Shown here piece after piece: positions 9,950 through 39,050 of a DNA stretch of 64,000 nucleotides (position 1 is its first letter; the number at the start of each line of letters is the position of its first letter). Below the pieces are notes generated by a model that did no database searches, was not told where the DNA came from, and saw only the letters and a list, made by a program, of their open reading frames with translations. This DNA comes from Ignavibacteria bacterium (lineage in GTDB: Bacteria > Bacteroidota > Ignavibacteria > Tepidaquicellales > Tepidaquicellaceae), in contig JAFGII010000114.1 in NCBI GenBank assembly GCA_016929695.1, forward strand, positions 1 through 64,000, in the 5' to 3' direction. The translations under genes and the position numbers were made by a program.

Positions 9950-11086
9950 CTATTTTTTATATTGTTTTATAATTTCTGTTATCCTTTTCAGGTCAATCAT
10001 CTTAATACACTCCAGGTCGTAAGGGCATACTCTTTTCCAGCAGGGCGCGCATTCAAGACCTTCTGGAATCAATTTGATTCCTTTGCCGTACAGTTCAATT
10101 TCGGACCAGCAGGATAATCCGAACCAAACGATAATATATTTCCGTAAGGCAATTGCCAGATGCATCCCGAAACTGTCTCCGGATACGATGATATCGGCAA
10201 TATCCATAAAGCAGGCACCTTTTCTTATACCCATAGTCGTGGGTGTATTAATAACATTCTTTTTTTCCTTTTCCGTAAGTGCATCATATATCTGCACATT
10301 CCTTTCCGTGTCTTCTCTGCCTCCGAGTAATACTGCTATGCATTCTCCGTAATTCACAATATTTTTTATTATTTCAATATGCTGCTGAATCGTCATTTTT
10401 TTATTAGGAAACAATTCCGAACATCCGGTGTTGAAACCTACATATTTTTTATCCGGATTATATTTTATTTCCTTTTTATAATTTTTTATGAACTCTTTTT
10501 CTTCTTTCGTGAAATTATAAATGTACCCATCTTTTTTATAATCAAGTTCAAACACTTCGTGTATTATATCAACCCCCGTCCTCATGTTCTTCCTGAATTT
10601 CATTTCGTCATTCAGCCCGAGTTTATAACTGTACATTGCGGAATAATTTGAGGGAATGATTTTTCCGTCTTCGTTCAAAAGAAATCCTAGTTTTCTTTTT
10701 GCTTTAACTTCGATGGCGAATGCACAGGCATAAAGCGATTTATCACCGTTCATTAAAATATCAAATTCCATATTCCTGAGCATCATTCTGTTTTCATCGT
10801 TCCAAATAAAAATCTTATCTATACAATGATTGTTCTGCAATATTTTCTCGGCATTCGGCAACGTCAGCCAGTAAACGGTACTTACCGGATATTTCCTTTT
10901 TACAGAATGTAAAATTGAAGTATTCAGCAGAACGTTTCCGAGCGCATCAAGTGAGATAATAAGTATTTTCGTACCCATTCTCGTCTCATCACTTTCATCG
11001 GCACATCCGTCTTCAAAACAATTTTTATAAGGTTCACAGGGTTTATAACCGCTGAATTTCTTGCATTTCGGAATATTTAAATCCAT
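9950..11086 (-). CDS. glycosyltransferase family 9 protein with N-terminal Cys cluster
   Basis: A heptosyltransferase-like GT-B enzyme that probably acts on LPS core or another surface glycan at the inner membrane. The GT9 N-terminal nucleotide-sugar fold starts near residue 37 with KILIISLDALGNVL. The C-terminal donor-site motif is GDSFGMHLAIAL. Two features stand out. First, a 36-residue N-terminal extension has Cys8, Cys17, Cys23 and Cys28 before the usual start. Second, the conserved Asp of the GDV motif (the proposed catalytic base in WaaC) is Asn51 here, read directly as AAC. A second Cys set (346, 349, 354, 360) near the end resembles the CxxC...CP...C motif of WaaF-type enzymes. Two more GT9 genes lie upstream. 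Its acceptor and activity are unknown. Confidence 0.85.
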   Translation of the reverse strand: MDLNIPKCKKFSGYKPCEPYKNCFEDGCADESDETRMGTKILIISLDALGNVLLNTSILHSVKRKYPVSTVYWLTLPNAEKILQNNHCIDKIFIWNDENRMMLRNMEFDILMNGDKSLYACAFAIEVKAKRKLGFLLNEDGKIIPSNYSAMYSYKLGLNDEMKFRKNMRTGVDIIHEVFELDYKKDGYIYNFTKEEKEFIKNYKKEIKYNPDKKYVGFNTGCSELFPNKKMTIQQHIEIIKNIVNYGECIAVLLGGREDTERNVQIYDALTEKEKKNVINTPTTMGIRKGACFMDIADIIVSGDSFGMHLAIALRKYIIVWFGLSCWSEIELYGKGIKLIPEGLECAPCWKRVCPYDLECIKMIDLKRITEIIKQYKK

Positions 11087-11096
11087 ATAATTTAAT

Positions 11097-12122
11097 TTAT
11101 TTTATTTCAACATATTTTAATACCTCAGCAGGGGTAATCCCGTCTTCAATTTTACAGCCGGGTTTACCTTCTCCGCAGTGCGTTTCGCAGAATTCCTTTG
11201 AAACTTCCAGATTAACCGACTTTTTATTAAGAACGCCCCAGTATTTTGCGGAACACATTGGTAACCGACAGTATATTCCTATACATTTAACATCAAGAGC
11301 ATCTGCAAGATGAATCGGTCCGGTTGAAGAGCATATCATTAAATCCGCATTTGAAATTGAACATATAAACTTTCTTAATCCTTTCACCTTATCTGCAATA
11401 TTTACAATCCTTTTATCATTCATTTCCGTGACTTTATTGATAAATTCATGAGACATTTCCATTGCAGTCAGTACAATTCTGAAATCTTTTTCATTAAATT
11501 TTTTAATAATTTCCGTTAATAATTCGAAATATCGGTTTTCAGACCAGTTCGGAGAGGAATTTTTTGAACCTGTATGCAGAAAAATTTTAAATATGTCATT
11601 CGGGATATTGTTATCTTCAAGAAATTTTATGCTTTCACTTTTTTCTTCTTCAGATACAAATATTTCAGGTATAACGTTATTGGTTTTAACACCTATCCTT
11701 CTTGCCAGATCCATACAATAATCCGCTTCGTGTTTTAATTTAACATATTTCTCACGCGAGACACTTCTCGTGAAAGTAAAAAGGCTGTATAATCTGAAAC
11801 CCGTCATATATCTTTTTTTCACTCTGCCGAGGAACAACTGATATGCAGCCCTCTCAGTAGGAAATATAATTAATCCGTGTGTAAACTTATTTTCTTTTAT
11901 TTTACTTACTACTTTCCTGAATGACTCCTTTTTTAAATCATCTGTAATTATAAGGTCAACGTATGGATTGTTTAAAAAAATATCTGCGGTATTTGGTTGT
12001 GATAAAGTAGCGACAAACGAATCCGGAAATGCCTTTTTCAGTTCTCTAACCACAGGAGTAACCATTACAGTATCCCCAATCCTGTCCGTTCTTACAACCA
12101 GTATTCTCTTCTGCTTAGCCAT
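11097..12122 (-). CDS. glycosyltransferase family 9 (heptosyltransferase-like)
   Basis: A 341-residue GT-B enzyme that probably transfers a heptose or related sugar onto the LPS core. The N-terminus carries VVRTDRIGDTVMVTPVVREL with the catalytic Asp17 intact, unlike the next gene downstream. The C-terminal half holds the donor-binding region FLHTGSKNSSPNWSENRY and the GPIHLADAL motif. A C-terminal cysteine set (FCETHCGEGKPGC) differs in spacing from those of its two neighbours. The gene lies 2 bases after one GT9 and 10 bases before another, so the three are almost certainly one transcript. The exact linkage made is unknown. Confidence 0.9.
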   Translation of the reverse strand: MAKQKRILVVRTDRIGDTVMVTPVVRELKKAFPDSFVATLSQPNTADIFLNNPYVDLIITDDLKKESFRKVVSKIKENKFTHGLIIFPTERAAYQLFLGRVKKRYMTGFRLYSLFTFTRSVSREKYVKLKHEADYCMDLARRIGVKTNNVIPEIFVSEEEKSESIKFLEDNNIPNDIFKIFLHTGSKNSSPNWSENRYFELLTEIIKKFNEKDFRIVLTAMEMSHEFINKVTEMNDKRIVNIADKVKGLRKFICSISNADLMICSSTGPIHLADALDVKCIGIYCRLPMCSAKYWGVLNKKSVNLEVSKEFCETHCGEGKPGCKIEDGITPAEVLKYVEIK

Positions 12123-12124
12123 TA

Positions 12125-13153
12125 TTACTTATTCTTTTGAATTAATATTTTAAGCTTATTTACTATTGTATTTTTATCCAGTTCAGTCATACAAATATTT
12201 TCAATCGGGCATTTCAGAAGGGCGCAATTAAGGCAGGCAAGTTTATCATTTACGACTGTTAAATGCTTTTTGCCGTAGGGTCCCTGCAATAACGGACTTG
12301 TCGGACCGAAAATGCCGAGCACAGGGACTCCTGTCGCAGCCGCTACGTGCATAAGTCCCGAATCGTTTGAGATTACTGCTTTGCATTTCCGCATCAATGC
12401 CGCCGCATAACGAATTGACGTTTCGGGTGCAATGAATGTTAATTCGGGCAAATTCTTATTTATATACTCGCATTCTTTCTTCTCCGTTTCCGTTCCCCAT
12501 AATAATATATATTTAAAATTATTGCATTGATTTATAACATTTATCAGTTCAACAAAATCCTTTGCTTTATATTTCTTTGATTCCCATCCGCCTGAGATAG
12601 GTATACCTATTACATCAATTCCGTTTAGATTATGAGAATTGAAAAATTCATTCGCGAAATCTTTATGTCCGGTTAAAATAGAAATATATGTTTCCTCTTG
12701 TCTGAAGGGGATACCGAGTTTCTTCAGGGACAACATTCCAAAATCAGCGTGATGGAAATCCCCTACTTTATACTTCCCGTCAACAATTAAGTTATATGCA
12801 TATCCTCTCCTCGGGAAATTAAATCCTACTCTGTATTTAGCATTGCTATAAAAGGTCAGAAATGTTGTACGGGGATTACAGAATAGATCTATAATTAAAT
12901 CGTATTTCTTTTTTTTTACGGTTTTTAATAAACGCAACGAGTCATCCTTTTCTAAATCAAAAGTAAGAATCCTATTAATGTCAGGGTTATCCATAAGGAC
13001 ATCTCTACATTTCAGTTGCGTCAGATAATTTATTTCTTTATCCAAATAGTAATTACGGAGATTTTTCAGTAACGGAGTGGATAATATCACATCACCAATC
13101 CCACCGAATTTTATAACAAGTATCTTTCTGATTTTTTCGTGCTCAATTCTCAT
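12125..13153 (-). CDS. glycosyltransferase family 9 (heptosyltransferase-like)
   Basis: A 342-residue GT9 protein, first of three in tandem. It has the family N-terminus ILVIKFGGIGDVILSTPLL with Asp21 in the catalytic position. The donor-site region includes PISGGWESKKY. The sugar-nucleotide loop is VISNDSGLMHVAAATGVPVLGIFG, given here only as a landmark near residues 250-275. A CxxC-x4-C-x5-C set (CLNCALLKCPIENIC) lies near the C-terminus, as in many WaaF-like enzymes. Its ATG overlaps the TAA of nth by one base (TAATG), so translation is coupled. Together with waaA and gmhA elsewhere in the window it supports a heptose-containing LPS core. Substrate order is not deducible. Confidence 0.9.
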   Translation of the reverse strand: MRIEHEKIRKILVIKFGGIGDVILSTPLLKNLRNYYLDKEINYLTQLKCRDVLMDNPDINRILTFDLEKDDSLRLLKTVKKKKYDLIIDLFCNPRTTFLTFYSNAKYRVGFNFPRRGYAYNLIVDGKYKVGDFHHADFGMLSLKKLGIPFRQEETYISILTGHKDFANEFFNSHNLNGIDVIGIPISGGWESKKYKAKDFVELINVINQCNNFKYILLWGTETEKKECEYINKNLPELTFIAPETSIRYAAALMRKCKAVISNDSGLMHVAAATGVPVLGIFGPTSPLLQGPYGKKHLTVVNDKLACLNCALLKCPIENICMTELDKNTIVNKLKILIQKNK

Positions 13154-13863
13154 TAAATATTATCTAATATTAAAAAATTATTCTCTTTATTTGCCGCTTT
13201 CGAGTTATAAAAATCTTCTTTATCAATAAATTCGCAATAATCATATAAAACACATAATCCGCACAAAGGTCTGACTGCTTTACATATTTCTCTCCCGAAC
13301 TTAATTAAATTTCTGTGGAATGATATTTTTTTTCTGCCCGGAATTAATGCCTCGGATTTTTCAAATGTATCTTCAGGAGATTTTGTCTTTACTATTCCAA
13401 GTCGGTTCAATACCCTGTGAATATGAGTATCAACGGGAAACACTTTTCTTCCCATAGAAAATGCAAGCACGCAGGATACGGTTTTTACTCCAATTCCTTT
13501 ATATTGAAGCAGTTCATCATATATCTTTTCGGTTTTATACTTTTTCAAAAAATCAAGATTAAGCGTCCCGTAATTTTTCTTCATATTATTCAGCATATTT
13601 TTAATATCTTTCGATTTTGTATCAGCCATTCCGCATACTTTAATCTGTTCCTTTATTTCCCTTAATGATGCATTTGTGAGAGCACCCCAGTTTTTATATT
13701 TTTTCTTCAGATTTTTATATGCGATATATGATGTTTTATCTGTCGTGTTTTGCGACAGTTTTGTGGCAATAAGTGTATCAAGAATGCCGCCTTTTGAAGG
13801 TTTGTTATTACTCTTATATTTTTTTTCAAGTTCGGATACTATTTTCAGTATTTTGTCCTGCAT
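13153..13863 (-). CDS. nth: endonuclease III (DNA glycosylase/AP lyase)
   Basis: A base-excision repair enzyme that removes oxidised pyrimidines and nicks abasic sites. The helix-hairpin-helix LLQYKGIGVKTVS contains the catalytic Lys, and the catalytic Asp lies in FPVDTHIHRV. A [4Fe-4S] cluster motif C-x6-C-x2-C-x5-C (CKAVRPLCGLCVLYDYC) follows. I start it at ATG 13863 (236 aa). A longer reading from TTG 13881 adds only MVFCKY, which has no family counterpart. A C-terminal tail of about 25 residues beyond the cluster is longer than in E. coli Nth. The stop overlaps the start of the first GT9 gene by one base, so this repair gene leads the glycosyltransferase operon. Confidence 0.95.
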   Translation of the reverse strand: MQDKILKIVSELEKKYKSNNKPSKGGILDTLIATKLSQNTTDKTSYIAYKNLKKKYKNWGALTNASLREIKEQIKVCGMADTKSKDIKNMLNNMKKNYGTLNLDFLKKYKTEKIYDELLQYKGIGVKTVSCVLAFSMGRKVFPVDTHIHRVLNRLGIVKTKSPEDTFEKSEALIPGRKKISFHRNLIKFGREICKAVRPLCGLCVLYDYCEFIDKEDFYNSKAANKENNFLILDNI

Positions 13864-13890
13864 ATATTTACAAAATACCAAATCATTATA

Positions 13891-32782: not shown

Positions 32783-34075
32783 ATGACTAAATTCTGGTTC
32801 TGTATATACAATACACTTCTCCTCCCTATATTGTGGACCGGATTCAGACTCGCATATCCTTTCAGTTCAAAAATCCGCAACGGTCTGAAAGAACGCAAAC
32901 TAATTAGGGAAAAACTTGAAAAAGCGGGATATCCGAGAAACAAGGATGGCTCAAAAAAAAATGTTATCATTCACTCATCTTCGCTTGGGGAATTTCAGCA
33001 AGCCATACCATTGATAGAGCAGTTAAGGAAAAGAAACTTTAATATCATATGTACTTTTTTTTCCCCTTCAGGATATAATCATGCAAAGATACCCTACTGC
33101 GATATATTAAAAATATATCTGCCGTTCGATTCACACAGACGAGTAAAAGAATTTCTGAATCTTATAGAGCCCGATTTAATTATTCTGATGAGATATGACC
33201 TCTGGTTTAATTTTCTTTATGAAGCAAAAAGGCGCAATATCACAATCACTGTTGCCAATGCGAGATTTGACGAGAAAGATAAAATCTGGTCAATGCTGAT
33301 AGCAGGTTCATTCAAAAAAACCATGTACAGAATGATTGACAAATTATTTGTAATTGATAAAGACGATGAATTGAATTACAAAAATAAACTGAAAGGTTTT
33401 AAAGGGGAAATAGTAATGGTTGGAGATTCCAAATATGAAAGAGTCTATAATAGTGTCAGGGATTTGAAAGATTATAGTGTTCTGCCTAAAGATATACATA
33501 AAAATAAAAAAGTTTTTGTAATAGGTAGTTCTTGGAAAGACGATGAGGATGTATTACTCCCCGTATTAGACAGGATTGAAGGTAAACAGGGAGGCATTCT
33601 GACGATACTCGTTCCCCACGAGCCCAAAGAAACAAAAATTTCGGCAATAGAAAAGACAATTTCTGTTAAATACAAAAATTTCAGGACAATACGCTACACG
33701 GGCATCAAAAATTATAAAAATGAAAATCTGATAATTGTTAATACAGTCGGCATACTGGCAAAATTATATTCCATAGCATATCTTAGTTATGTAGGAGGCG
33801 GATTCAGAACGGGTCTTCACAATATACTTGAACCTGTTATTTTTAATGTACCGGTTTTTTTTGCTAATCAGGCAAAAAATTCCGACGAAGATGAACTTTT
33901 ATTAAAATCCGGGTGCGGTATTCCAATTAAAAATAAGAAAAATTTTTTCAGAGAAGTATATCCTCTGCTAAATGACAAAGGATACAGAGACGAACTTGCA
34001 GCAAATTGTTCAAAAGTATTTGAACATACACTCGGTACTGCAGAAAAAATTATAAAAAATCTGTTTATAAATTAA
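32783..34075 (+). CDS. waaA: 3-deoxy-D-manno-octulosonic acid (Kdo) transferase
   Basis: Adds Kdo to lipid A precursor at the inner membrane, a key step of LPS synthesis. A hydrophobic N-terminal anchor (YNTLLLPILWTGFRLAYPF) leads into the GT-B fold. The catalytic-base Glu is in HSSSLGEFQQ near residue 70. The CMP-Kdo region has GGGFRTGLHNILEPVIFNVPV (landmark only) near residues 345-365. The phrase RYDLWFN replaces the proteobacterial ExELWPN, a variation seen in Bacteroidota-like lineages. 430 residues is normal. It lies 6 bases after frr and 12 before gmhA. Confidence 0.93.
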   Translation: MTKFWFCIYNTLLLPILWTGFRLAYPFSSKIRNGLKERKLIREKLEKAGYPRNKDGSKKNVIIHSSSLGEFQQAIPLIEQLRKRNFNIICTFFSPSGYNHAKIPYCDILKIYLPFDSHRRVKEFLNLIEPDLIILMRYDLWFNFLYEAKRRNITITVANARFDEKDKIWSMLIAGSFKKTMYRMIDKLFVIDKDDELNYKNKLKGFKGEIVMVGDSKYERVYNSVRDLKDYSVLPKDIHKNKKVFVIGSSWKDDEDVLLPVLDRIEGKQGGILTILVPHEPKETKISAIEKTISVKYKNFRTIRYTGIKNYKNENLIIVNTVGILAKLYSIAYLSYVGGGFRTGLHNILEPVIFNVPVFFANQAKNSDEDELLLKSGCGIPIKNKKNFFREVYPLLNDKGYRDELAANCSKVFEHTLGTAEKIIKNLFIN

Positions 34076-34087
34076 AAACACATAAAA

Positions 34088-34663
34088 GTGGATAAAAAAA
34101 AGTTTATTAATGATTCCTTAAAAGAAAGTTCGGAAATAAAATTATTGGTTCTTGAAAAATGTACTGAAGATATACTGAAAGTTACCGACCTGCTTATTGA
34201 GCGCGTAAAAAGCGGGAATAAAATAATGCTTTGCGGAAACGGCGGAAGTGCAGCAGATGCACAACATATTGCCACGGAATTCATGGTAAGACTTTCACAT
34301 GACATTAAAAGACCTGCCATCCCTGCTCTCGCACTGAATACAGATACTTCCAATTTAACCGCAGGCGGCAATGATATCGGTTTCGTAAATATATTCGCAA
34401 GAAGTGTTGAAGGGCTCGGGAAAAAAGGCGATGTACTTGTATGCATTTCTACCAGCGGAAATTCCGTTAATATTATAAATGCAGTACACAAAGCAAAAGA
34501 AATCGGGATTATCTCCGTAGGTTTACTCGGCATGGGAGGAGGAAAACTTGCAAAGCTTTGTGATAATAATATAATCGTCCCCTCCGATAACATCCAACGT
34601 ATTCAGGAATCACATATAACAATCGGACATATTCTTTGTGAATTAACAGAAAGAAACATTTAA
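34088..34663 (+). CDS. gmhA: D-sedoheptulose 7-phosphate isomerase
   Basis: First step of ADP-heptose synthesis for the LPS core: converts sedoheptulose 7-phosphate to D-glycero-D-manno-heptose 7-phosphate. It has a single SIS domain of 191 residues with LCGNGGSAADAQHIATEF (substrate and zinc-like site), STSGNSVNIINA and the late QESHITIGHILCELTE. The start is GTG at 34088; no ATG is available before the domain. It follows waaA by 12 bases. Its presence explains the need for the three GT9 transferases at 10-13 kb. The partner genes gmhB and hldE are not in the window. Confidence 0.95.
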   Translation: MDKKKFINDSLKESSEIKLLVLEKCTEDILKVTDLLIERVKSGNKIMLCGNGGSAADAQHIATEFMVRLSHDIKRPAIPALALNTDTSNLTAGGNDIGFVNIFARSVEGLGKKGDVLVCISTSGNSVNIINAVHKAKEIGIISVGLLGMGGGKLAKLCDNNIIVPSDNIQRIQESHITIGHILCELTERNI

Positions 34664-34864: not shown

Positions 34865-36658
34865 TCACTTCACTGCTTTGAACGGTTCCTTCACCGGATA
34901 ATACCGGTCTTCACCCGCTTCATCTCTGTAAGAAAAGAAAAATTCAAGATTGCTTAAATCAGTAACATCATCAAGGAACACGGAATATTTCCCCGAATTA
35001 TAACCGTCATTAAGAGATTCGGATAATTCCATAACTTTGGGTATTAAATTTTCTTCTCCGCTTGTAGTATAGTATATTTTCACGAATCCCGGCTCGATTA
35101 AATATTTCGAAGCCAGCGAAATTGAAATTTTAACTCCATTATCCGTAGTCATATCAACCTCCGGTTCATTGCTCCATACTGCCCCCCAGTATAGAGCAGC
35201 ATAGTATGCATTAACTAGTCCCCATCCGTACACATTGTCTGGATTATTTGACCTGTCGGCGGTATTTCTTAACGCTTCACGTACCTGCATCGGAGTTAAT
35301 TCGGGATGTGCAGAAAGAATCAATGCACAAACACCTGCAGTCAACGGACAGGAGAAAGATGTCCCGTTCATCATTCCATAAGTTGAATCATTACCTGTAA
35401 TATTTTTTCCGATTGTACAGAAATTTTTATAACCCAGGGCAACTACATCAGGTTTGATTCTTCCGTCGGATGTAGGACCGTTAGAACTGAAAGAAGTAAT
35501 AATACCTTTCTGGTCAACCGCCCCAACGGCAATAATCGAATCACCATCAGCAGGTGAACCGATAGAAGGGGGGTCTATCTGATGATTATTTCCAACCGAA
35601 GTCACTACGACGACACCGTAATATGCTGCTTTATTTCCAGCCAGTGTTGTTATTGCTGTCTTCCCGTCGTAATTTTCATATTTATAAGAATTCTTTACAA
35701 ACGGCTCATCAAATTCCCTGTATCCGAGTGAACTTGTAATAATATCTGCTCCCATTAACTCAGCCCATTCTGCCGCTTCAAGATAAAAGTCTTCTTCCAT
35801 AGGAGTCTCTGTAACTGTGTATTCTGTCTTTGCAAGAATTATATCCGAACCATATGCCGTTCCGATAATTTTTCCGGGTTTATATCCCGCTAAATTAGAA
35901 AGTGTTGCCGTGCCGTGCATACTCTGGTCGTTTCTGTCGGTATATAACTGTCCGCTAATTTCATTAAATGTTTTATCGTCCTTATTAATAAAATCATACT
36001 CTGCAATTACATTCAAATCTCTTAATGCTTCATGGTTGCGCCATTCGAATCCGCTGTCGAAACTTGCTATCATAACACCCTTACCGTTTATACCTAAATT
36101 ATGAAGTTTAGGGACATTAATCTGATTTACCTGGTCATAAGATTTTCCGTAATTTAATCTCTCTGTGTTTAATATACTGCTGTTATCTTCAATATCCGTT
36201 AATTCAATTATTTTTACCGGTCCGCTATTATCTATGGAATTATTATGATATTTCCCCATTAAAAATAATCCTGACACACAATCAAGTTTCTTTACTGTTT
36301 CCATTTCCTGAAGATTTAAATACGCACTAACACCGTTAAACCATCTCGATTTTGCAATTATATTTATTCCTTTAGATTCAATCACTTCTATATATCCTTC
36401 ATTTAGAGGAAGGTCATCATAGGATATTAAATTTTCCTCATTTAACACTTTCAGTCTTCTCTTAATTGCACGTTCCGTTAAAAGTGATTTACCCAGTTCA
36501 TAGGCTTCGGAGCCGGGTGTTATTACTTCATTTGTTTTAAATACTCCTTTGTCTTTGAAGATAATCCAGTATTTTGCGTCGGGTTTCTCCTGTGCATTAA
36601 GACTTAATACTGCAACAAAAATAATAAGTAAAACAAAAAATTTCCTGATTTCTCGCAT
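34865..36658 (-). CDS. exported subtilisin-like serine protease (S8 family)
   Basis: A 597-residue secreted protease. A signal peptide (KFFVLLIIFVAVLSLNA) is followed by an inhibitor-like propeptide (YWIIFKDKG ... GVSAYLNLQEMETVK). The catalytic triad is complete: Asp in IASFDSGFEWRNHE, His in SMHGTATLSNLAG, Ser in MNGTSFSCPLTAG, and the oxyanion Asn in TSVGNNHQ. The catalytic domain spans about residues 190-490. About 100 further residues form a beta-rich tail, but this lacks the YPNPFNP sorting signature, so export beyond the periplasm by T9SS is not shown. Family members with this layout are common in Bacteroidota. Its terminator lies at 34792-34817. Confidence 0.92.
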   Translation of the reverse strand: MREIRKFFVLLIIFVAVLSLNAQEKPDAKYWIIFKDKGVFKTNEVITPGSEAYELGKSLLTERAIKRRLKVLNEENLISYDDLPLNEGYIEVIESKGINIIAKSRWFNGVSAYLNLQEMETVKKLDCVSGLFLMGKYHNNSIDNSGPVKIIELTDIEDNSSILNTERLNYGKSYDQVNQINVPKLHNLGINGKGVMIASFDSGFEWRNHEALRDLNVIAEYDFINKDDKTFNEISGQLYTDRNDQSMHGTATLSNLAGYKPGKIIGTAYGSDIILAKTEYTVTETPMEEDFYLEAAEWAELMGADIITSSLGYREFDEPFVKNSYKYENYDGKTAITTLAGNKAAYYGVVVVTSVGNNHQIDPPSIGSPADGDSIIAVGAVDQKGIITSFSSNGPTSDGRIKPDVVALGYKNFCTIGKNITGNDSTYGMMNGTSFSCPLTAGVCALILSAHPELTPMQVREALRNTADRSNNPDNVYGWGLVNAYYAALYWGAVWSNEPEVDMTTDNGVKISISLASKYLIEPGFVKIYYTTSGEENLIPKVMELSESLNDGYNSGKYSVFLDDVTDLSNLEFFFSYRDEAGEDRYYPVKEPFKAVK

Positions 36659-36675
36659 TGTTATTATTTATTTAA

Positions 36676-38004
36676 TTAAAAAGTATAGTTTTCAAGATAA
36701 TGAACTACTTTCATTATAAACTTTCCACCAAGTGCGCCATCAACCAAACGATGGTCAAATGACAATGTTAAATATACAATCGGTTTGATTGTTACAAAAT
36801 CTCCTTCGGAGGTTTCGGTTACTGACGGACGTTTTTTTACCGCACCTACTCCGAGTATTGCTACCTGCGGCTGGTTGATTATCATAGTCCCGATAATATT
36901 CCCGAACACTCCGTAATTTGAAATTGTAATTGTTCCACCCTGTATTTCATCGAGTGTCAGTTTTTTTACTCTTGCACGTTGTCCTAAATCGTTTATTTCC
37001 CTTGCCAGACCAACTAAATTTTTGCCATCAGCTTCTTTTATAACAGGAACGATTAATCCTCCATTGTCCATCGCAACGGCTATTCCAAGATTAACTCTGC
37101 TTCTCATTATTGCTTTGAACGGAACCGATGAATCGTCAATTACGGAATTGACAAGCGGAAAATCTTTTAGTGCTTTCACTAAAGCATCCGCGATAAAAGG
37201 CATATAGGTTAATTTAAATCCTTCTTTCTCTTCAAATTCTTTTGCCATTTCTTTTCTGATTTTATCAATCCTTGATAAATCACATTCCGCAATTGCATTT
37301 ACGTGAGGTGATACAGAAGAAGACTGAACCATATGTTCCGCCATCTTCTGACGTATGTTATCAAACTCAATTACACTTAATCCTTCTTCATTGTAATCAA
37401 TTTTTTGTTTAGGAGGTTCTGCCGGTTTCGCAACTGCCCTTGGAATTGTATCCGTCTGAGGTGCTGCGGCAACCTGTTGTTGAACTGAAGATTTACCTTT
37501 TCCCTTTATATATTCCAGTATGTCTTTCTTTGTAACTCTGCCTTCAAGACCTGTACCTTTCACCGTTTCGAGTTCTGACATTGGAATACCCTCTTCCTTT
37601 GCAATATTCATTACCAGAGGTGAATAAAATCTCGATGCGGTTACTTTTTCGGTTTCGGGCTCAGTTTTTTCAGCAGGTTTCACTTCTGTTCTCGGTTTTT
37701 CATCAGTTTTTTCTTTCTCTGGCTCTTTCGGTTCACCGGCTGCAGAAGTTGTGACTGCGGTTCTTGCTTCTGTTTCGAGTCTTGCAATTACTTTCCCGAC
37801 TTCTACAACATCATTTTCTTTAAATAATTTCTCAACAAGTATTCCCGATTCAGGACTTGGAACTTCAGTATCAACTTTATCGGTCGAAATTTCGAGCAGA
37901 TTCTCGTCCCTTTCGATTTTGTCACCGACATTTTTCAACCATTTCAATATCGTTCCCTCCATTATAGATTCGCCCATCTTCGGCATTACAATATCTACTA
38001 TCAT
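36676..38004 (-). CDS. 2-oxoacid dehydrogenase E2 (dihydrolipoyl acyltransferase)
   Basis: Core acyltransferase of a pyruvate, 2-oxoglutarate or branched-chain 2-oxoacid dehydrogenase complex. One lipoyl domain (residues 1-75) has the lipoylated Lys in EISTDKVDTEVPS. A long Glu/Lys/Thr/Pro-rich linker follows. The E1/E3-binding domain is at about 130-165 (FYSPLVMNIAKEEGIPM). The catalytic domain ends with SFDHRLVDGALGGKF, which bears the active His and Asp. Which acyl group it carries cannot be told from sequence alone. No E1 or E3 gene is nearby, so the complex is assembled from dispersed genes. The gene lies 17 bases upstream of the S8 protease and may share its transcript. Confidence 0.93.
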   Translation of the reverse strand: MIVDIVMPKMGESIMEGTILKWLKNVGDKIERDENLLEISTDKVDTEVPSPESGILVEKLFKENDVVEVGKVIARLETEARTAVTTSAAGEPKEPEKEKTDEKPRTEVKPAEKTEPETEKVTASRFYSPLVMNIAKEEGIPMSELETVKGTGLEGRVTKKDILEYIKGKGKSSVQQQVAAAPQTDTIPRAVAKPAEPPKQKIDYNEEGLSVIEFDNIRQKMAEHMVQSSSVSPHVNAIAECDLSRIDKIRKEMAKEFEEKEGFKLTYMPFIADALVKALKDFPLVNSVIDDSSVPFKAIMRSRVNLGIAVAMDNGGLIVPVIKEADGKNLVGLAREINDLGQRARVKKLTLDEIQGGTITISNYGVFGNIIGTMIINQPQVAILGVGAVKKRPSVTETSEGDFVTIKPIVYLTLSFDHRLVDGALGGKFIMKVVHYLENYTF

Positions 38005-38117
38005 TTTATTTTCCTCTTGATTATATTTTAATTTTTTTTAAATATTTTTACATTAAATAAATTCCGCATTGTAACCTTTTATTTACTTCAATTACAACAA
38101 CAATTAACTCAAAAATG

Positions 38118-39050
38118 TTACACTACTTCAAACAGTGAAGTTATTGACTGATTTTTATTTGTTCGTTTAATTGCCTCGGCAAAAATATTGGCAACGGTCA
38201 TAATTTCAATTTTTGGCGAATTATGTTTTAATTGTACGGTATCGGTTATAAATAATTTTTTCAGCGGAAGCTTACAGATTTTTTGCCATGCATTTCCGGA
38301 AAGGACAGGATGAGTACAGGCACCGTAAATTTCCTTTGCTCCCTGTCTTTCGATTTCCAAGACGGCATTTGAAAATGTTCCTCCGGTATCAATCAAATCA
38401 TCAACAACTAAAACATTTTTCCCTTCAACTTCACCGATTACATTCATTATTTCGGCTAAATTGGGTTTTGGTCTTCTTTTATCAATCACAATTAAATCAG
38501 AATGAAGTCTTTTCGCATAAGCCCTTGCCATTTTAATACCTCCTACATCCGGGGACGCAACGGCAAGATTTCTGATTTTCATATCAACAAACTTTTTTAG
38601 AAAAATCGCCGAGCCGAATAAGTGGTCAACCGGTATATCAAAAAAACCCTGCAATTGTGGGGCGTGCAGGTCCATCGTTATTATTCGGTCTGCACCCGCT
38701 TTCTGTAAAAGATTTGCAATAAGTTTTGCGGTAATCGAGACTCTCGGCTGATCTTTTCTGTCCTGTCTTGCATAACCAAAATAAGGAATTACGGCATTAA
38801 CTCTTAATGCAGAAGACCTTTTTGCGGCATCTATCATTATCAATAACTCCAGCAAATTTTCAGCCGGGGGATTCGTGGACTGTACAATAAATACGTCATT
38901 CCCTCTAATATTCTCTGAATATTTCATCCATATTTCACCGTCTGAAAAAGTCTTAAACTTAACATGACCAAGTTCTTTTCCTAAACTCTTTGCAATTTTT
39001 ACACCTAAATAATTTGAACTTCTTCCTGAAAAAATTTTTAACTGTGACAT
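38118..39050 (-). CDS. prs: ribose-phosphate pyrophosphokinase (PRPP synthetase)
   Basis: Makes PRPP from ribose 5-phosphate and ATP for nucleotide, His and Trp synthesis. The 310 residues show class I features: FSDGEIWMKYSENIRG, the flexible loop region YARQDRKDQPRVSITAKL, MDLHAPQLQGFFDIPVDHL (landmarks) and the PRPP loop VLVVDDLIDTGGT near residue 220. It sits alone, with 113 bases to the E2 gene downstream and 137 to DUF3109 upstream. Confidence 0.97.
   Translation of the reverse strand: MSQLKIFSGRSSNYLGVKIAKSLGKELGHVKFKTFSDGEIWMKYSENIRGNDVFIVQSTNPPAENLLELLIMIDAAKRSSALRVNAVIPYFGYARQDRKDQPRVSITAKLIANLLQKAGADRIITMDLHAPQLQGFFDIPVDHLFGSAIFLKKFVDMKIRNLAVASPDVGGIKMARAYAKRLHSDLIVIDKRRPKPNLAEIMNVIGEVEGKNVLVVDDLIDTGGTFSNAVLEIERQGAKEIYGACTHPVLSGNAWQKICKLPLKKLFITDTVQLKHNSPKIEIMTVANIFAEAIKRTNKNQSITSLFEVV

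What the first reader, a model, noticed from the sequence alone, without database searches (positions are those of the whole stretch)
9950..13153. GT9 trio in which the last member has lost the catalytic Asp and gained an N-terminal Cys cluster
Asp is conserved in the GDV/GDT motif of the two upstream GT9 proteins (Asp17, Asp21), but the third has Asn51, coded by AAC. The same protein carries an added Cys8/17/23/28 segment and a second C-terminal Cys set. In WaaC the Asp is the proposed catalytic base, so this member may be inactive, use a different mechanism, or act as a regulatory partner. The Cys cluster could bind zinc or an Fe-S cluster.
Basis: partly seen in the sequence, partly recalled or inferred. 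Interest (0 to 1): 0.55.

Follow-up and report, generated by a model that had tools for sequence, protein, structure and literature searches.

The report
Sugar transferase missing its usual base
A well-conserved group of bacterial surface-sugar enzymes has repeatedly lost the acidic residue thought to be essential for this enzyme family while keeping its sugar-donor residues, which suggests that the reaction is done in a different way here, and the cysteine cluster beside it turns out to be older and unrelated.

Summary
The third GT9 protein of the operon (window 9950-11086, minus strand) has Asn51 (AAC) at the HepI/WaaC Asp13 position, plus Cys8/17/23/28 and four C-terminal Cys. It is not a sequencing error: Asp was lost about four times in the subfamily (of 111 distinct members: Asp 52, Asn 45, Ala 9, Thr 4, Ser 1). 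The two features are not linked. The N-terminal Cys are in all 111, Asp-bearing or not, and in 33 of 33 more distant N-Cys GT9s that all keep Asp; the C-terminal Cys set is common in ordinary GT9s. The protein does not look dead: HepI Lys192 and Asp261 equivalents are 111 of 111, and dN/dS is roughly 0.03-0.06. In this subfamily acid is fixed at residue 47 (111 of 111) and free at 51; in the other GT9s examined it is fixed at 51 and free at 47. Lys45, Arg54, Trp231 and Phe290, fixed in the other N-Cys GT9s, are gone. Best reading: a surface-glycan (probably LPS-core) transferase of Ignavibacteria with a rewired active site, Asp47 being the likeliest replacement carboxylate. Activity, donor, base identity and metal are untested.

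The parts
9950..11086 (-). P0001, 378 aa, N-Cys GT9 protein lacking the GT9 base Asp (Asn51)
   Evidence: PF01075 E 3.6e-14; AlphaFold2 mean pLDDT 90.2; Z 25-31 to solved GT9 proteins
10934..10936 (-). codon 51, AAC = Asn, at the HepI Asp13 position
10946..10948 (-). codon 47, GAT = Asp, the acid that is fixed in this subfamily (111 of 111 Asp/Glu); HepI Ser9 position
11003..11065 (-). N-terminal Cys segment (Cys8, Cys17, Cys23, Cys28), the mark of the N-Cys GT9 subfamily
10007..10051 (-). C-terminal Cys set (Cys346, 349, 354, 360), of a kind common in GT9
11097..12122 (-). P0002, GT9 protein with Asp17 but Ser in place of the HepI Asp261 residue (STGPIH, the WahF-type signature)
   Evidence: relatives
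12125..13153 (-). P0003, GT9 protein with intact GDV and DSGLMH; best curated model LPS heptosyltransferase II (below its cut-off)
13153..13881 (-). endonuclease III-like gene (HhH-GPD plus EndIII Fe-S motif), first gene of the row, one-base overlap with P0003
32783..34075 (+). KdtA-type Kdo transferase, shows that the genome makes Kdo/LPS
34088..34663 (+). GmhA-like SIS-domain protein (heptose pathway candidate, below the gmhA equivalog cut-off)

Best explanation
P0001 belongs to an Ignavibacteria subfamily of N-Cys GT9 proteins that most likely still transfers sugar, in the same surface-glycan (probably LPS core) pathway as its GT9 neighbours, but with a rewired active site. The donor side of the cleft (HepI Lys192 and Asp261 equivalents) is kept. 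On the other side, Lys45 was replaced by Asn/Ser and an acid became fixed at residue 47, one helical turn before the classical base. After that, Asp51 was no longer needed and was lost repeatedly (to Asn, Ala, Thr, Ser). Most likely Asp/Glu47 now deprotonates the acceptor or holds it so that the donor phosphate can take the proton. Shown: the residue patterns, the losses, the purifying selection, the predicted fold. Inferred: that the protein is active, which residue is the base, the donor, the acceptor, the pathway and any bound metal.
For: Position 51 in 111 distinct subfamily members: Asp 52, Asn 45, Ala 9, Thr 4, Ser 1; position 47 Asp 104, Glu 7; Lys229 111, Asp304 111, His309 108. In 33 of 33 other N-Cys GT9s position 51 is Asp and 45 is Lys, while 47 varies (Asp, Glu, Gly, Ala); in other GT9s of the same loci position 51 is acid in 136 of 136 readable and 47 is Arg, Asp, Asn, Gly, Ala and others. 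Tree: four Asp/non-Asp changes by parsimony; all 59 Asp-less members have acid 47 and no Lys/Arg45, and all 52 Asp-bearing members of the subfamily already have Asn45 and acid 47. Purifying selection alike in Asp-less pairs (16 pairs, dN/dS 0.026-0.064) and Asp-bearing subfamily pairs (8 pairs, 0.022-0.061). No compensating new acid or His elsewhere in the Asp-less clades. Fold: Z 30.7 (rmsd 2.8) to 3tov, 27.5 (3.6) to 1psw, about 25 (3.0) to WaaC. In published docking/MD, HepI residues 9-11 touch docked streptomycin and residue 13 touches docked tobramycin in the cleft (PMC9068772, passages). Linked to other GT9s; heptose-pathway and Kdo-transferase genes are in the genome.
Against: No activity data for any member. 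Acid 47 is also common in ordinary GT9s that keep Asp51 (all 27 readable P0002-type proteins), so it is not by itself a sign of a moved base. HepI Asp13Ala loses about 4,700-fold activity (PMC5713226, passages), so simple loss without replacement should be crippling. Asp115 is another nearly fixed acid (110 Asp, 1 Glu) and could be the base instead. Starred branches alone force only two or three changes, not four, and both trees warn that the long outgroup branch makes the root unsure.
Confidence: 0.5

Rival explanations
1. Pseudoenzyme or partner subunit: the Asp-less proteins bind nucleotide sugar or glycan but do not catalyse, and regulate or scaffold the adjacent GT9 enzymes (P0003 and P0002).
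For: The residue whose loss costs HepI most activity of the three quoted is gone; gene is often directly beside one or two other GT9s; Lys45, Arg54, Trp226, Trp231 and Phe290, fixed in 33 of 33 other N-Cys GT9s, are also gone; a fold of this kind seems to have been recruited as a structural subunit in plant NDH complexes (chains 7wff_a, 9grx_1 and 7f9o_6 at Z about 21; that these are PnsB1-type subunits is recalled).
Against: Donor-site Lys229 and Asp304 are 111 of 111, so equally fixed in Asp-less and Asp-bearing members; dN/dS does not differ visibly; Asp-bearing members share Asn45 and the other remodelled positions, so the remodelling came before the loss.
Confidence: 0.25
2. POFUT1-like chemistry: Asn51 itself relays the acceptor proton to the donor phosphate, or the phosphate is the base outright.
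For: CePOFUT1, an inverting GT-B enzyme without a catalytic-base residue, has Gly42-Asn43 whose backbones bind the donor phosphate and whose Asn side chain binds the fucose and is proposed to place the acceptor; Asn43 mutants, even to Asp, are inactive, and QM/MM supports an Asn tautomer relay (PMC3180450 and PMC8631701, passages). The sequence context Gly50-Asn51 is similar.
Against: Ala, Thr or Ser stands at 51 in 14 of 59 Asp-less members, which cannot relay a proton as an amide does; Asp is kept in 52 close relatives. Whether the two motifs occupy the same place in the fold was not tested.
Confidence: 0.15
3. Complementary half-enzymes: P0001 (no Asp13 equivalent) and P0002 (no Asp261 equivalent) make one composite active site.
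For: Next to Asp-less clade-1 proteins the neighbour is usually a fam-4 GT9 with Ser at the Asp261 position (28 of 28 fam-4 members), while next to Asp-bearing ones it is usually a fam-5 GT9, in which the Asp261-type Asp was read in 23 of 25 (one gave no match and one another stretch). In a second, independent Asp-less clade three of eight loci (L163, L167, L170; most others are too short to tell) also hold a P0002-type GT9 with STGxxH one gene away.
Against: P0002-type proteins go with neither state: at E 1e-40 or better they are in 13 of 17 genomes whose protein was read as Asp-bearing and in 6 of 10 read as Asp-less (five further genomes, state not read, all have one); two near-complete genomes of the window's family (G008, G020) have the Asn51 protein but no P0002-type protein. 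WahF heptosyltransferases with Ser261 are active (PMC3559599, passages).
Confidence: 0.03
4. Sequencing or assembly error at codon 51.
For: A single G-to-A change would make Asn from Asp.
Against: Asn in 45 distinct proteins from many assemblies, including a complete chromosome (L083).
Confidence: 0.01

Closest known systems
E. coli HepI/WaaC and WaaF (CAZy GT9; PDB 2h1h, 1psw)
   Same: fold match within the same Pfam family (Z 25-27); Lys192, Asp261 and His266 equivalents present
   Different: Asp13 equivalent lost; Lys7 and Trp194 equivalents replaced by Ser and Met; Phe inside the D(T/S)(G/A)xxH signature; extra N-terminal four-Cys segment
Veillonella parvula GT9 protein of PDB 3tov (function not known to me)
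   Same: closest solved structure (Z 30.7, rmsd 2.8, 319 residues; profile E 7.6e-26)
   Different: keeps the GDV Asp; no Cys in the stretch aligned to the C-terminal Cys set
TibC / bacterial autotransporter heptosyltransferases (PMC4358343, passages)
   Same: GT-B transferase with four Cys near its C terminus, which bind Fe(III) in TibC; fold match Z 18.7 but rmsd 8.4
   Different: TibC needs Asp110 as base; Cys spacing differs; TibC has a 97-residue beta-barrel in front, P0001 only 38 residues before its GT9 domain; TibC has no N-terminal Cys segment that I know of
POFUT1 (GT65; PMC3180450, PMC8631701, passages)
   Same: inverting GT-B enzyme that works with Asn instead of an acidic base
   Different: different family; its Asn is conserved and essential, whereas residue 51 here varies to Ala, Thr and Ser
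WahF heptosyltransferases (PMC3559599, passages)
   Same: a heptosyltransferase group that dropped one otherwise conserved residue (Asp261 to Ser) and stayed active; P0002 resembles this
   Different: WahF keeps Asp13, the residue that P0001 lacks

Membership tests
GT9 (PF01075 Glyco_transf_9) | match above Pfam's curated cut-off | tested here: met
   53.1 bits against 22
GT9 (PF01075 Glyco_transf_9) | GT-B fold like solved GT9 members | tested here: met
   AlphaFold2 model, Z 25-31 to WaaC, WaaF and 3tov
LPS heptosyltransferase I/II/III (curated equivalogs) | score above TIGR02193/02195/02201 cut-offs | tested here: not met
   43.4, 51.8 and 39.3 bits against 185.3, 134.6 and 170.2
LPS heptosyltransferase I/II/III (curated equivalogs) | Asp13 catalytic base | tested here: not met
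   Asn51
LPS heptosyltransferase I/II/III (curated equivalogs) | Lys192 and Asp261 donor-site residues | tested here: met
   Lys229 and Asp304, 111 of 111
LPS heptosyltransferase I/II/III (curated equivalogs) | signature D(T/S)(G/A)xxH | tested here: not met
   DSFGMH here; DSFGMH in 94 of 111, and Phe, Tyr, Leu or Met at the third place in all 111
LPS heptosyltransferase I/II/III (curated equivalogs) | transfer of heptose from ADP-heptose | not testable with these tools
   needs an assay; ADP-heptose pathway genes are present in the genome
TibC-type autotransporter heptosyltransferase | Asp110 base | tested here: not met
   equivalent residue is Asn51, through the WaaC superposition reported in PMC4358343 (passages); not aligned directly
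TibC-type autotransporter heptosyltransferase | four-Cys iron finger | tested here: inconclusive
   four C-terminal Cys are present with other spacing; residues 341-360 of the model have pLDDT 56-57; metal not testable
N-Cys GT9 subfamily (named here) | four N-terminal Cys, the first two as C-x(8)-C, before the GT9 domain | tested here: met
   111 of 111 close members, counting the fourth Cys shifted by one residue in three, and 33 of 33 distant ones

The most novel reading that the evidence does not exclude
A natural base relocation inside one glycosyltransferase family: loss of Lys45 and fixation of an acid at residue 47 moved the catalytic carboxylate by one helical turn, after which the textbook GT9 base was free to drift to Asn, Ala, Thr or Ser in about four lineages without loss of activity.
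Probability: 0.35. Interest if true: 0.65.

Novelty: new variant of a known kind. Interest (0 to 1): 0.45.

Why it matters
Asp13 was one of only two residues conserved in all heptosyltransferases compared in one study (PMC3559599, passages) and is taken as the base of the family. A conserved subfamily in which that position is free, while the donor-site Lys and Asp are not, gives natural mutants for asking which residue really does the chemistry in GT9 enzymes. It also warns against calling GT9 proteins dead or alive by the GDV motif alone, and it sets apart an N-Cys GT9 subfamily in Ignavibacteria for which I saw no description.

Tried and rejected
Cys cluster coupled to Asn: rejected, the Cys are in all Asp-bearing N-Cys relatives examined. 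Sequencing error: rejected. Compensating acid or His gained in the Asp-less clades: none found under the thresholds used. Complementary half-enzymes P0001 and P0002: the pattern was striking in the window's clade and recurs in three loci of a second clade, but genome-wide P0002-type proteins do not follow the loss of Asp51. Direct literature on Asp-less or N-Cys GT9s: none seen in the listings (open-licence PubMed Central only; some searches listed 20 of 51, 10 of 75, 15 of 22 and 10 of 41 papers). NCBIfam scan up to E 0.1 listed no autotransporter-heptosyltransferase model for P0001; this is no proof of absence. PMC8124905 (one passage) gave nothing on the base. Two automatic gene readings (L041, L058) look like wrong-strand ORFs in G+C-rich DNA and were not used for neighbour counts.
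Full report
WHAT IS THERE. Window 9950-13153 (minus strand) holds three GT9 proteins in a row, transcribed P0003, P0002, P0001, behind an endonuclease III-like gene that overlaps P0003 by one base. The gaps are 2 bases (P0003 to P0002) and 10 bases (P0002 to P0001). A 487-aa ORF follows 102 bases after P0001; I take it for RpoN from memory of its sequence, not from a search. All three match PF01075 above its cut-off. P0001 has Asn51 (AAC, window 10936-10934), Cys8/17/23/28 and Cys346/349/354/360.

MAPPING. A profile of 21 relatives aligned with solved heptosyltransferases places residue 51 on HepI Asp13, 47 on Ser9, 45 on Lys7, 229 on Lys192, 304 on Asp261 and 309 on His266. An AlphaFold2 model (78 sequences, mean pLDDT 90.2, pTM 0.88) matches 3tov (Z 30.7, rmsd 2.8), WaaF (27.5, 3.6), WaaC (about 25, 3.0) and, more weakly, TibC (18.7, 8.4). 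HepI Asp13Ala, Asp261Ala and Lys192Ala lose about 4,700-, 2,000- and 930-fold activity (review PMC5713226, passages). In one comparison of characterised heptosyltransferases only Asp13 and His266 were conserved in all (PMC3559599, passages).

POSITION 51 IS FREE IN THE SUBFAMILY. The window's own protein and the 24 best full-length matches in 59 related genomes all have Asn. Named relatives (80 loci kept of 226 confirmed) carry titles such as Ignavibacteria, Melioribacteraceae, Stygiobacter, Candidatus Kryptonia or Bacteroidetes bacterium; some at 67-68% identity have Ala (L086, L109). After adding more distant ones, I took ORFs of at least 300 aa, dropped identical or contained sequences and fragments, and kept 146 with a profile score of at least 100. 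The close group (score at least 400) has 111: position 51 is Asp 52, Asn 45, Ala 9, Thr 4, Ser 1. One of these is a degenerate-looking paralogue (L081) and one is cut at its 3' end (L119). Of the other 35, two (L131, L150) are ordinary GT9s without the N-terminal Cys; the remaining 33 all have Asp51.

CONTROL. Other GT9 proteins in the same loci: 143 distinct, motif readable by pattern in 136, acid at position 51 in 136 of 136 (134 Asp, 2 Glu). Of the seven unread, six have Asp by eye and one is cut. So, within what I sampled, the loss is specific to this subfamily. Among 35 columns that are fixed in at least 32 of the 33 other N-Cys GT9s, position 51 is one of nine kept in under 90% of the close group. 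The others are 45, 54, 226, 231, 290 (all fully replaced), 34, 21 and 55; 24 of the remaining 26 are kept in at least 96%. The site was therefore remodelled at several places: Lys45 to Asn/Ser/Ala/Cys, Arg54 to other residues, Trp226 to Phe/Tyr, Trp231 to Met/Leu/Ile, Phe290 to Gly.

HISTORY. On trees built without columns 45-52 (109 rows; 144 rows) Asp/non-Asp needs four changes. In one search the Asp-less clades hold 47, 8, 3 and 1 rows. Starred branches alone force three or two, and both trees carry a warning about long branches at the root. With the Asp-bearing distant N-Cys GT9s as outgroup the changes read as losses, with no return to Asp. In 59 of 59 Asp-less members residue 47 is Asp or Glu and residue 45 is not Lys/Arg; the 52 Asp-bearing members of the subfamily also have Asn45 and acid 47. 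None of the 33 Lys45-bearing N-Cys GT9s has lost Asp51.

NOT DECAYING. Lys229 and Asp304 are 111 of 111, His309 108 of 111. Nei-Gojobori dN/dS for pairs over 84% identical: 33 pairs, 25 computable (8 saturated). The 16 Asp-less pairs give 0.026-0.064; the 8 Asp-bearing pairs of the same subfamily give 0.022-0.061 (three of them include the fused domain of L154, L161 and L180); one further pair is from the other N-Cys GT9s. Most dS values exceed 1, so these are orders of magnitude only.

CYSTEINES. The four N-terminal Cys are in 111 of 111 close members (the fourth is shifted by one residue in L037, L168 and L171, read by eye) and in 33 of 33 distant ones, whatever residue 51 is. Of 140 other GT9s in which the region could be read, 126 have no Cys before the motif. 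So the Cys segment marks an older N-Cys GT9 subfamily and is not coupled to the Asn. The C-terminal Cys set is ordinary: 103 of 143 other GT9s have at least four Cys in their last 75 residues, and 68 of 143 match a C-x2-C...C...C spacing. L081 has lost its C-terminal Cys but keeps the N-terminal ones, which hints at two separate sites. TibC binds Fe(III) through four Cys near its C terminus, and mutants lose iron, assembly and activity (PMC4358343, passages). A structural metal site is thus plausible here but untested.

CONTEXT. In 28 of the 42 loci that belong to the window's clade a P0002-type GT9 lies directly upstream (two of the other 14 are cut at the contig end), and in 22 of 42 a DegT/DnrJ aminotransferase follows, though not in the window. 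In 23 of the 35 loci L125-L161 (without L127 and L135) the order is P0003-type GT9, another GT9, N-Cys GT9. A P0003-type GT9 also lies beside the protein in the second Asp-less clade. The genome has heptose and Kdo genes: an rfaE domain II match above cut-off in 30 of 30 genomes searched, heptose epimerase above cut-off in 27 of 30, Kdo transferase in 29 of 30 (in the window at 32783-34075), and gmhA-like matches in 30 of 30, only 3 above cut-off and the window's own below it. A role in LPS core assembly is the natural guess, not a result.

MECHANISM. HepI-type chemistry needs an acceptor base. In the loop and first helix turn (residues 45-52) the only acid always present in this subfamily is residue 47 (Asp 104, Glu 7 of 111). 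In published docking and simulation HepI residues 9-11 touch streptomycin and residue 13 touches tobramycin between donor and acceptor (computational; PMC9068772, passages), so residue 47 (HepI 9) is in the right region. I therefore favour Asp/Glu47 as replacement base or acceptor clamp. Asp115 (110 Asp, 1 Glu) is the second candidate. Against: P0002-type proteins carry both acids (27 readable of 28), and no distance could be measured. A POFUT1-like Asn or phosphate mechanism is a real precedent for base-less inversion (PMC3180450, PMC8631701, passages), but natural Ala51, Thr51 and Ser51 members speak against a general Asn relay. A pseudoenzyme remains possible.

A HALF-ENZYME IDEA THAT FAILED. 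P0001 lacks the Asp13 equivalent and its neighbour P0002 lacks the Asp261 equivalent. The pairing is regular in the window's clade (28 of 28 fam-4 members have STGPxH) and shows up in three loci of a second Asp-less clade (L163, L167, L170). But P0002-type proteins occur in 13 of 17 genomes read as Asp-bearing and 6 of 10 read as Asp-less (five more genomes, state unread, all positive), and G008 and G020 have the Asn51 protein without any P0002-type protein at E 1e-40. So the two losses do not go together.

FILING. P0001 is a GT9 protein by profile and predicted fold. It fails three features of characterised LPS heptosyltransferases (equivalog cut-offs, Asp13, the D(T/S)(G/A)xxH signature) and meets two (Lys192, Asp261). 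I do not file it as a heptosyltransferase; it may work like one.

Noticed in passing
window 11097-12122 (P0002) and 28 fam-4 relatives: P0002-type proteins keep the Asp13 equivalent but have Ser in place of Asp261 (STGPxH), the signature published as unique to WahF heptosyltransferases; similar STGxxH proteins are in L163, L167 and L170.
   Followed up: partly
L154:8974-10998, L161:4178-6208, L180:1244-3268: In three genomes the N-Cys GT9 ORF runs on to 674-676 aa; in L154 the extra part is a homocysteine S-methyltransferase domain (PF02574). In most other Asp-bearing loci that gene follows directly, often overlapping.
   Followed up: partly
L081:3257-4417 (genome G016): A second, degenerate-looking copy: SLDGLSNV motif (Gly50 also lost) and the whole C-terminal Cys set gone, N-terminal Cys kept.
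   Followed up: no
L070, L072-L080: A more distant N-Cys GT9 branch keeps Asp51 but has Val in place of the Asp261 equivalent and Arg for Lys192 (ten rows each): the opposite loss.
   Followed up: partly
fold search of P0001: Plant chloroplast NDH-PSI supercomplex chains (7wff_a, 9grx_1, 7f9o_6) match at Z about 21, so a GT9-like fold seems to sit in that complex as a subunit.
   Followed up: no
L172, L173, L174 (same phylum, another family): Three far members have His309 replaced by Phe or Tyr with Glu47 and Asp51 kept, yet another rearrangement of the same site.
   Followed up: no
window 34865-39050 against L082: Genes that follow the GT9 row in relatives (PRPP synthetase-like, lipoyl-domain acyltransferase-like, a 597-aa protease-like protein; names recalled from sequence) lie over 20 kb away on the other side of kdtA/gmhA in the window, so the region has been rearranged.
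   Followed up: no
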